Source: Actinomycetota bacterium (GTDB lineage Bacteria; Actinomycetota; Acidimicrobiia; IMCC26256; JACDBD01). Taken from it: 8,971 bases of DNA. The DNA is taken from positions 1 to 8,971 of the forward strand of contig JACDBD010000115.1 in NCBI GenBank assembly GCA_013695115.1. The letters run 5' to 3'. Both the position numbers and the translations under genes were made by a program. The notes beneath the pieces are model-generated. The model saw only the letters and a list, made by a program, of their open reading frames with translations. It made no database searches and was not told the DNA's origin. This document shows, piece by piece, positions 5,827 to 5,928 of this stretch (positions are counted from its first letter, which is position 1; each line of letters begins with the position of its first letter).

Positions 5827-5850
5827 AAAAACCGCCCCCGAAGGGACGGT
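5827..5850 (-). terminator. Intrinsic terminator in the leuB leader
   Basis: On the minus strand ACCGTCCC (5850-5843) pairs with GGGGCGGT (5838-5831), including one G-U pair, around a C(UUCG)G tetraloop. TTTTT follows (5831-5827, its first T shared with the stem). An extra-stable tetraloop plus a U-tract is the textbook form of an intrinsic terminator. It lies before leuB rather than after a gene, so its likely job is premature termination of the operon transcript. Confidence 0.85.
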
Positions 5851-5855
5851 CGACA

Positions 5856-5878
5856 CGAACGCCGGGGGCCGGCGTTCG
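5856..5878 (-). promoter_or_regulatory. Leader hairpin 1 (pause or antiterminator element)
   Basis: CGAACGCCGG (minus, 5878-5869) pairs perfectly with CCGGCGTTCG (5865-5856) around a CCC loop. The stem begins immediately after the leader-peptide stop codon, so a ribosome at the stop, or stalled on the last Val/Ile codons, would cover its 5' arm. The sequence AGCGAACG recurs downstream at 5820-5813 and could pair with the 3' arm instead. Confidence 0.75.
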
Positions 5879-5914
5879 CTACTGAATGACGATGACGGTG
5901 GCGGCGTGGTGCAT
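5879..5914 (-). CDS. BCAA operon leader peptide (11 aa, MHHAATVIVIQ)
   Basis: ATG 5914 to TAG 5879 encodes MHHAATVIVIQ. Residues 7-10 are Val-Ile-Val-Ile (GTC ATC GTC ATT), a run expected of a regulatory leader peptide that senses charged tRNA(Val) and tRNA(Ile). It ends just before a strong hairpin, with a U-tract terminator further on. A -10-like TACCCT ends 8 nt before the ATG, so the message may begin at or close to it, without a Shine-Dalgarno sequence. The peptide itself probably has no function once made. Such a short coding sequence could arise by chance, but codon content, position and downstream hairpins agree. Confidence 0.78.
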   Translation of the reverse strand: MHHAATVIVIQ

Positions 5915-5922
5915 GTGCGGTC

Positions 5923-5928
5923 AGGGTA
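5923..5928 (-). promoter_or_regulatory. Putative -10 box of the leuB operon (TACCCT)
   Basis: TACCCT on the minus strand lies 8 nt before the leader-peptide ATG, which would put the transcription start at or close to that ATG. No good -35 is seen. It lies 27 bp from, and divergent to, the -10-like box at 5956-5961. Confidence 0.5.

What the first reader, a model, noticed from the sequence alone, without database searches (positions are those of the whole stretch)
5827..5928. Val-Ile leader peptide and intrinsic terminator form an attenuator before leuB-ilvE-cimA
Seen: MHHAATVIVIQ with four branched-chain codons in a row, a 10-bp hairpin right after its stop, then a UUCG-capped terminator with a U-tract, all in the leuB leader. 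Known: ribosome-mediated attenuation of ilv/leu/trp operons uses this layout. Inferred: shortage of charged tRNA(Val/Ile) allows read-through into the operon. The possible antiterminator (GCCCCCG 5869-5863 with CGGGGGC 5840-5834) would pair with the terminator's 3' arm, unlike the usual 2:3 scheme. The leader also appears leaderless, so the ribosome could load at the RNA 5' end. I do not know of this exact element being described.
Basis: partly seen in the sequence, partly recalled or inferred. Interest (0 to 1): 0.75.

Follow-up and report, generated by a model that had tools for sequence, protein, structure and literature searches.

The report
Codon-run attenuator with stop-codon hairpin
In front of an isoleucine/leucine-making operon of an Acidimicrobiia bacterium lies a tiny reading frame that ends in four valine/isoleucine codons, with a predicted RNA hairpin built onto its stop codon and a transcription terminator right behind; it likely switches the operon on when charged valine or isoleucine tRNA runs short, and the same layout with the matching amino-acid codons precedes three other branched-chain amino-acid genes, apparently without the alternative RNA fold that textbook switches of this type need.

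Summary
A scan on structure alone found stop codon, hairpin and terminator before leuB in 80 of 150 loci; 77 of them have two to four Val/Ile in codons -5 to -2. A covariance model matches 231 of 395 Acidimicrobiia genomes. The element also precedes cimA (Ile runs), ilvB (Leu/Val/Ile runs; one copy in this genome) and leuA (Leu runs), so control codons follow the pathway product. The hairpin's first pair uses the stop codon's last base, with matching changes (148 of 148), and the terminator starts 0-8 nt later (163 parsed leaders). My reading: a ribosome stalled on the run leaves the hairpin folded, so ribosome and polymerase would nearly collide and the terminator is blocked (ON); a ribosome at the stop melts the hairpin, gives slack, and the terminator folds (OFF). 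Sensing is strongly supported; the switch step is inferred from geometry.

The parts
5923..5928 (-). predicted -10 box TACCCT; its last base lies 9 nt before the uORF ATG, so the transcript is predicted to start within a few nt of the ATG
   Evidence: sequence; 100 of 140 leaders have nAnnnT ending 8-10 nt before the ATG (controls 7-15), and 51 of 140 have TTGAC starting at -37 to -39; the window's own -35 is poor
5879..5914 (-). leader uORF MHHAATVIVIQ and stop TAG
   Evidence: sequence; counterpart with a Val/Ile run in 77 of 150 leuB loci
5885..5896 (-). control run Val-Ile-Val-Ile (GTC ATC GTC ATT), codons -5 to -2
   Evidence: cognate residues enriched at -5..-2; identity tracks the downstream gene
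5855..5879 (-). stop-anchored hairpin (strands 1:2), first pair made by the last base of the stop codon
   Evidence: covariation, 0/500 shuffles for the two-helix structure; stop-base pairing 148 of 148 leaders with that offset
5852..5854 (-). 3-nt spacer between hairpin and terminator
   Evidence: 0-8 nt in 163 of 163 parsed leaders
5827..5851 (-). intrinsic terminator (strands 3:4; UUCG loop) with U-tract
4732..5724 (-). leuB, 3-isopropylmalate dehydrogenase (TTG start, my choice of start codon), first gene of the regulated operon
   Evidence: NF002898, 493.7 bits, cut-off 393
3806..4726 (-). ilvE, branched-chain aminotransferase
   Evidence: TIGR01122 and NF005146
2200..3819 (-). cimA, citramalate synthase (Ile pathway)
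   Evidence: TIGR00977, 686.5 bits, cut-off 450

Best explanation
The leader holds a tiny frame ending in Val-Ile-Val-Ile-Gln-stop, a predicted hairpin that starts on the stop codon's last base and an adjacent terminator, and it most likely acts as a ribosome-dependent transcription attenuator of leuB-ilvE-cimA in which the hairpin is predicted to work as a bridge between stalled ribosome and RNA polymerase rather than as half of a base-paired switch. Shown: layout, covariation, codon identity matched to four operon types, lack of a conserved antiterminator across the family. Inferred, low charged Val/Ile-tRNA: the ribosome stalls on the run, the hairpin stays folded at its mRNA entry, and only about 18-35 nt of unpaired RNA would link P-site and polymerase once the terminator is folded; that is at or below the published 'collided' range, in which the polymerase is modelled not to respond to termination hairpins, so it would read through (ON). 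Inferred, supply good: the ribosome runs on to the stop, melts the hairpin, the linker grows to about 36-53 nt, the ribosome leaves, and the terminator folds (OFF).
For: Element in 231 of 395 class genomes and in 53 of the 58 genomes G000-G057 of the window's order; in 73 of 396 genomes sampled across the phylum, 44 of them outside the class. Run codons -5..-2 by downstream gene: leuB operon 138 Ile + 98 Val of 268, no Leu; cimA 122 Ile of 136; ilvB 82 Val + 52 Leu + 22 Ile of 160; leuA 44 Leu of 48. Codons -6 and -1 near background except ilvB, 0.47 at -6. Rare codons favoured: GTA 47% of 194 leader Val codons against 5% of 4976 in coding regions. Stop base paired in 148 of 148 leaders with offset -1: TAG with G:C or G:U, TAA/TGA with A:U. 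Spacer 0-8 nt in 163 of 163 parsed leaders and 0-5 nt in 20 of 20 loci outside the class, where the hairpin reaches 41 nt. Both helices in the minimum-energy fold in 163 of 163; linker lengths 18-35 nt (stalled on the run) and 36-53 nt (at the stop). 2:3, loop:4 and 1:4 pairings not better than permuted partners, while 1:2 and 3:4 are. Literature: collided complexes at 26-34 nt, free above 38 nt, modelled not to respond to termination hairpins (PMC10953045, passages); a translating trailing ribosome lowers termination at pyrL from 21.5% to 9.9%, and high force on the RNA keeps the terminator open (PMC10135430, passages). The sign (starvation = ON, four codons needed) was measured for a mycobacterial ilvB1 leader with codons LVVI (PMC13236596, section 10 part 1).
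Against: No experiment on this element. In the leuB group a 4-bp 2:3 core GRYG:CGUC pairs in 47-48 of 48 leaders, and the loop:strand-4 pairing is stronger than letter-shuffled controls (leuB -13.0 against -10.1 kcal/mol; all 163 -11.6 against -9.6), so a base-paired antiterminator is not excluded. In PMC10135430 elongation inhibitors (tetracycline, fusidic acid) removed the ribosome's effect on termination (legend), so a stalled ribosome need not act like a translating one. PMC10953045 also reports a factor-assisted expressome at 41-47 nt, inside my 'at the stop' range. The linker lengths ignore the width of two hairpin bases, rest on an E. coli-type footprint (recalled), and are a geometric count, not a test. 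The fold counts use stretches chosen by a parse that required two hairpins with the first starting within 3 nt of the stop's last base, and short spacing is partly built into the models that collected cimA, ilvB and leuA leaders. Ten leaders read after the count have weaker runs (30 Val/Ile of 40 codons, e.g. VARI, VFSI). Authors of the mycobacterial and Corynebacterium ilvB papers propose mutually exclusive folds.
Confidence: 0.52

Rival explanations
1. Classical attenuator: a base-paired antiterminator (strand 2 with strand 3, or hairpin loop with the terminator's 3' arm as in the ilvB-II motif) forms when the ribosome stalls and excludes the terminator.
For: Core GRYG:CGUC of 2:3 paired in 47-48 of 48 leuB-type leaders; inner half of 1:2 varies less than the outer half; loop:4 stronger than letter-shuffled; this is the published model for Corynebacterium and mycobacterial ilvB leaders (PMC10272879, PMC11857589, PMC13236596).
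Against: No covariation for 2:3 (443/500 shuffles reach the cells paired). Over 163 leaders 2:3 is weaker than with permuted partners (100/100 permutations at least as good; 98, 99, 96 and 86 of 100 within leuB, cimA, ilvB and leuA) and loop:4 is no better than permuted (26/100). Most serious: a ribosome stalled on the run leaves strand 1 largely free, so strand 2 stays locked in 1:2; only a ribosome at the stop frees it, which would give the wrong sign.
Confidence: 0.22
2. The stop-anchored hairpin is only a polymerase pause signal that synchronises ribosome and polymerase; read-through arises by a step not seen here.
For: Pausing at an early hairpin is standard in attenuators (recalled), and PMC11857589 assigns a pausing role to its first hairpin (passages).
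Against: Does not by itself explain the exact register with the stop codon, the 0-8 nt spacer to the terminator, or how stalling blocks the terminator.
Confidence: 0.13
3. The nascent peptide arrests the ribosome at the stop codon in response to a metabolite (TnaC-like, recalled) rather than by tRNA charging.
For: Hydrophobic C-terminus and stop-proximal run.
Against: Val and Ile interchange in the leuB group, runs become Ile, Leu/Val/Ile or Leu with the operon, residue X varies, and rare codons are favoured.
Confidence: 0.05
4. Inverse logic: a ribosome at the stop codon frees strand 2 for 2:3 and turns the operon ON when Val/Ile are plentiful.
For: Follows from simple masking if 2:3 is the antiterminator.
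Against: Makes little sense for biosynthesis of the sensed amino acids; a mycobacterial ilvB1 leader with four such codons is induced when BCAA synthesis is inhibited (PMC13236596).
Confidence: 0.04
5. An ordinary terminator and small ORF without regulatory role.
For: Short ORFs and GC-rich hairpins are common in GC-rich DNA.
Against: Conservation, position-specific codon runs, product matching, covariation.
Confidence: 0.02

Closest known systems
Mycobacterium tuberculosis ilvB1 leader attenuator (PMC13236596, 2026; section 10 part 1 and passages read)
   Same: uORF with four BCAA codons (LVVI), terminator before ilvB1, stall on the run = ON, ribosome at the stop = OFF, run-to-Ala mutant uninducible
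   Different: their model uses a mutually exclusive antiterminator and concerns one operon. Here cimA, leuB-ilvE-cimA and leuA are included and no exclusive fold is conserved. I did not fetch or align that leader
ilvB-II motif / Corynebacterium ilvBNC attenuator (PMC10272879, abstract, section 10 part 1 and section 14 read; PMC11857589, passages read)
   Same: BCAA uORF, two stem-loops, terminator with U-tract; in C. glutamicum the transcript starts one nt from the leader start codon
   Different: there the uORF spans most of the first stem and a region of its loop pairs with the terminator's right shoulder; here the first stem begins at the stop codon and that pairing is not conserved
Candidate ilvB, cys and leuA leaders of Actinobacteria (PMC1262725, part 1 of the text and passages read)
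   Same: runs of cognate codons near the stop codon (cys) and beside terminators (ilvB); [quoted passage not shown]
   Different: their leuA LEU element is a pseudoknot involving the Shine-Dalgarno box, not a terminator; the word Acidimicrob does not occur in the paper
Escherichia coli pyrBI attenuator (passages in PMC10135430; rest recalled)
   Same: the coupled ribosome itself prevents terminator folding, without an antiterminator
   Different: senses UTP through polymerase speed, and the frame runs into the terminator (recalled); here amino-acid codons and an intervening hairpin
Escherichia coli trp/his attenuators (recalled)
   Same: leader peptide with control codons, terminator, sign of control
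   Different: control codons overlap strand 1 of mutually exclusive hairpins there; here both stems lie after the control codons and do not exclude each other

Membership tests
Ribosome-mediated transcription attenuators (broad sense) | short leader ORF with a run of codons for the pathway product | tested here: met
Ribosome-mediated transcription attenuators (broad sense) | intrinsic terminator between leader ORF and operon | tested here: met
Ribosome-mediated transcription attenuators (broad sense) | read-through changes with tRNA charging | not testable with these tools
   needs reporter or Term-seq
Classical trp-type attenuator | mutually exclusive antiterminator (2:3) against terminator (3:4) | tested here: not met
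   no covariation and weaker than permuted partners over 163 leaders; a 4-bp core is conserved in leuB leaders, so not fully excluded there
Classical trp-type attenuator | ribosome stalled on control codons masks strand 1 | tested here: not met
   the stem starts at the stop codon's last base, one codon plus the stop beyond the last control codon; the footprint length is recalled from E. coli, and a stall on the last control codon could cover the first few bases of the stem
ilvB-II motif | first-stem loop pairs with the 3' shoulder of the terminator | tested here: not met
   51% of cells, slid controls 50-68%; no better than permuted partners, though stronger than letter-shuffled ones
Any Rfam 15 family | score at or above the gathering threshold | tested here: not met
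   0 matches in the window and in 14 loci; weak matches far below threshold
LEU element of actinobacterial leuA | pseudoknot with the Leu run pairing to the leuA Shine-Dalgarno box | not tested
   the 13 leuA leaders here carry a stop-anchored hairpin and terminator; the pseudoknot was not searched for

The most novel reading that the evidence does not exclude
A family of amino-acid attenuators works without any antiterminator: a hairpin fixed to the stop codon is a retractable spacer that a stalled ribosome leaves folded, jamming ribosome and RNA polymerase so closely that the terminator cannot close, and that a ribosome only a few codons further unfolds to give the terminator room. Swapping the four codons retunes the same device to Ile, Val/Ile, Leu/Val/Ile or Leu.
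Probability: 0.37. Interest if true: 0.85.

Novelty: new variant of a known kind. Interest (0 to 1): 0.7.

Why it matters
[quoted passage not shown] The present family gives a precise geometry (run at codons -5 to -2, one free codon, stop base as first base pair, 0-8 nt to the terminator) that suggests an answer and makes it directly testable by changing a spacer. It extends branched-chain attenuation to cimA and to the citramalate route of Ile synthesis, and gives covariance models by which such operons can be annotated. If the bridge model holds, ribosome-polymerase distance, not competing base pairs, is the switch.

Tried and rejected
Strand 2 with strand 3: attractive at first because the core pairs in nearly all leuB leaders, but weaker than permuted pairs in every class. 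Frameshift into leuB: the frame of leuB is open through the leader in the window, but stop-to-leuB distances in relatives are not in one frame, so dropped. Arrest peptide: dropped because Val, Ile and Leu exchange with the operon. Rfam: no family. A search of 40 genomes with the second model gave 85 matches: 84 precede ilvB, leuA, cimA or leuB-family genes and one (L291) is intragenic; no trp, his or other operon (read). Its codon columns favour Leu/Ile/Val, so this is a weak negative. Homologous-protein search, structure prediction and fold search were not used; they would not bear on an RNA switch.

Rows dropped or added: from the 80 structural hits, L080, L081 and L091 (no run) before the codon counts; 16 loci by the skip list; A2 used 48 of the 65 references printed there (near-duplicates and odd lengths left out); L291 and loci cut off by contig ends (such as L247) from then on; L242 did not parse; 176 entries became 164 after removing identical leaders. 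In one search, 11 leaders were not classed by the motif rule; I assigned 10 to leuB and L287 to leuA. Eleven leaders read later (L174, L184, L320-L328, L329 being a longer fetch of L320) are not in the counts. A spurious row in A3 (L013 reverse) was avoided by repeating the search as A5. A first alignment (A1) held a wrongly placed leader (L037) and was not used for counts.

Full report
Where it is. The window is contig G000:C120 of a genome whose leuB relatives are Acidimicrobiia. On the minus strand leuB, ilvE and cimA follow each other. Between the divergent gene at 6028-7167 (weak matches to AI-2E-family transporters, below cut-off) and leuB lies the leader: predicted -10 box 5928-5923, uORF MHHAATVIVIQ 5914-5879, hairpin 5879-5855, spacer 5854-5852, terminator 5851-5830 with T-tract to 5827.

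Conservation. I read 150 leuB upstream regions: 30 loci, 80 and 40 (some genomes twice). A scan for stop codon + hairpin starting near it + terminator, with no condition on the peptide, hit 80; in 77 of the 80 two to four of the codons -5 to -2 are Val or Ile. Of the 70 without a hit, 59 come. A covariance model from 48 leaders (R1) finds the element in 231 of 395 class genomes, including 53 of the 58 genomes G000-G057 of the window's order.

Covariation. In the 48-leader alignment the hairpin and terminator pair in 98.6% of cells, with 45 both-side changes against a mean of 9.7 in shuffles (0/500) and clear excess over slid versions. The first pair of the hairpin uses the last base of the stop codon: of 148 leaders with that offset (of 163 parsed, the parse allowing a start up to 3 nt later), 124 TAG leaders show G:C, 10 TAG leaders G:U, 8 TAA and 6 TGA leaders A:U. 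So stop codon and stem are locked in register.

Codons follow the product. Matches outside leuB precede cimA, ilvB and leuA. Of 164 distinct leaders the four codons before the last one are: leuB operon (67 by motif) 138 Ile and 98 Val of 268 with no Leu; cimA (34) 122 Ile of 136; ilvB (40) 82 Val, 52 Leu, 22 Ile of 160; leuA (12) 44 Leu of 48. R1, which collected most non-leuB leaders, was trained on Val/Ile runs and R2 on all types, so some hydrophobic bias in what was found is possible, but neither model knows the downstream gene. The window's own genome has the ilvB copy MSPSTLLVVVT (G000:C108:1779-1860). Enrichment is at codons -5 to -2; the cognate fraction at -1 is 0-0.15 and at -6 is 0-0.10 except ilvB 0.47. 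Rare codons are preferred: GTA is 47% of 194 leader Val codons but 5% of 4976 in coding regions; CTT 29% against 7%; ATT 35% against 16%. Ten further leuB-type leaders read at the end have weaker runs, 30 Val/Ile of 40 codons. The pattern is what a tRNA-charging sensor should look like and is hard to reconcile with a sequence-specific arrest peptide.

Promoter. Of 140 leaders with an ATG start, 100 have nAnnnT ending 8-10 nt before the ATG, against 7-15 in eight windows of equal width elsewhere, and 51 have TTGAC starting at -37 to -39. The start site is therefore predicted within a few nt of the ATG. In C. glutamicum the ilvBNC start is one nt from the leader start codon (PMC11857589).

No conserved antiterminator. 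The 2:3 pairing has a core present in 47-48 of 48 leuB leaders, but without covariation. Over 163 leaders I compared duplex energies with permuted partners: 1:2 and 3:4 are far better than permuted (0/100), 2:3 is worse (100/100 at least as good), loop:4 is the same (26/100), 1:4 is worse (100/100). Against letter-shuffled partners loop:4 is stronger (-11.6 against -9.6 kcal/mol overall; leuB -13.0 against -10.1), a result that speaks for the rival and that I cannot fully explain beyond C-rich loops facing G-rich arms. The minimum-energy fold of the stretch from the stem to the U-tract contains both hairpins in 163 of 163 (the stretch was chosen by the two-hairpin parse).

The sign problem and the proposed answer. 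With the stem starting at the stop codon, a ribosome stalled on the run leaves most of the stem free, while a ribosome with the stop codon in its A site covers strand 1 (footprint recalled from E. coli). If 2:3 were the antiterminator, starvation would give termination. Codon matching and the mycobacterial precedent (LVVI codons, induced when BCAA synthesis is inhibited, AAAA mutant uninducible; PMC13236596) say the opposite. The hairpin should therefore favour read-through when folded next to a stalled ribosome. Counting unpaired nucleotides from the P-site to the polymerase's 3' end with the terminator folded gives 18-26 nt (last run codon in the A site), 27-35 nt (first run codon) and 36-53 nt (stop codon, hairpin melted). 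A review gives 26-34 nt for collided complexes, free movement above 38 nt without factors, and modelling that collided polymerases cannot respond to termination hairpins; it also gives 41-47 nt for a NusA/NusG-assisted complex (PMC10953045, passages). A translating ribosome lowers termination at pyrL from 21.5% to 9.9%, and force on the RNA keeps the terminator open, but elongation inhibitors removed the ribosome's effect in that system (PMC10135430, passages). Hence the bridge model, as an inference from geometry with that open point.

Spread. Across the phylum 73 of 396 genomes match, 44 outside the class. Of 20 loci outside the class that I read, 20 have the stem on the stop base, spacer 0-5 nt (0 in 10) and stems up to 41 nt long. 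Fifteen precede ilvB (14 by rule, L309 by its sequence), 2 cimA, 1 leuA, 1 leuB; for L300 the gene was not identified. Variable hairpin size with near-constant flanking distances fits a spacer role.

Literature. Searches in the held library: actinobacterial attenuators, Acidimicrobi + attenuation + leader peptide + terminator (0 papers), citramalate synthase/cimA + attenuation (1 paper, seen in the listing only, on another subject), antiterminator and stalled ribosome, 'no antiterminator', expressome. In these I saw no description of this layout before cimA or the leuB-ilvE-cimA operon, of the stop-base pairing, or of the bridge idea; I read only the papers named here in part, and most subscription papers are missing from that library.

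Verdict. Attenuator identity about 0.93; bridge mechanism about 0.4; new variant of a known kind.

Noticed in passing
window 5736-5822 (minus): A roughly 85-bp dispersed repeat that folds into a strong hairpin lies between the terminator and leuB; at least 16 other matches to this part (76-84% identity) are in the own genome (40 of 224 candidates scored). It lengthens the stop-to-leuB distance to about 154 nt against 70-100 nt in many relatives.
   Followed up: partly
G000:C108:1779-1860 (L241): Second copy of the element in the same genome, before ilvB, peptide MSPSTLLVVVT with a Leu/Val run.
   Followed up: yes
L248, L262, L267, L269, L272, L275, L277, L279, L285, L287-L290, L328: leuA genes of two sequence types carry the same device with Leu runs.
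   Followed up: yes
window 1577-2119 (minus): 180-aa ORF downstream of cimA with no NCBIfam match, between cimA and a frame that looks like glutamyl-tRNA synthetase (not tested).
   Followed up: no
L304-L306, L311, L312, L314, L315, L319: Outside the class many ilvB leaders end in Leu-Val-Leu-Ile-X-stop, nearly fixed at the DNA level (CTC GTA CTT ATT), some with longer hairpins and often zero or one nt of spacer.
   Followed up: partly
A2 columns 55 and 71: A U.G wobble inside the terminator stem is kept in 43 of 48 leuB leaders; reason unknown.
   Followed up: no
G010, G021, G028 (one family, small genomes): Members of the window's order without a match; no such leader was seen before their leuB (L132, L129, L127).
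   Followed up: no
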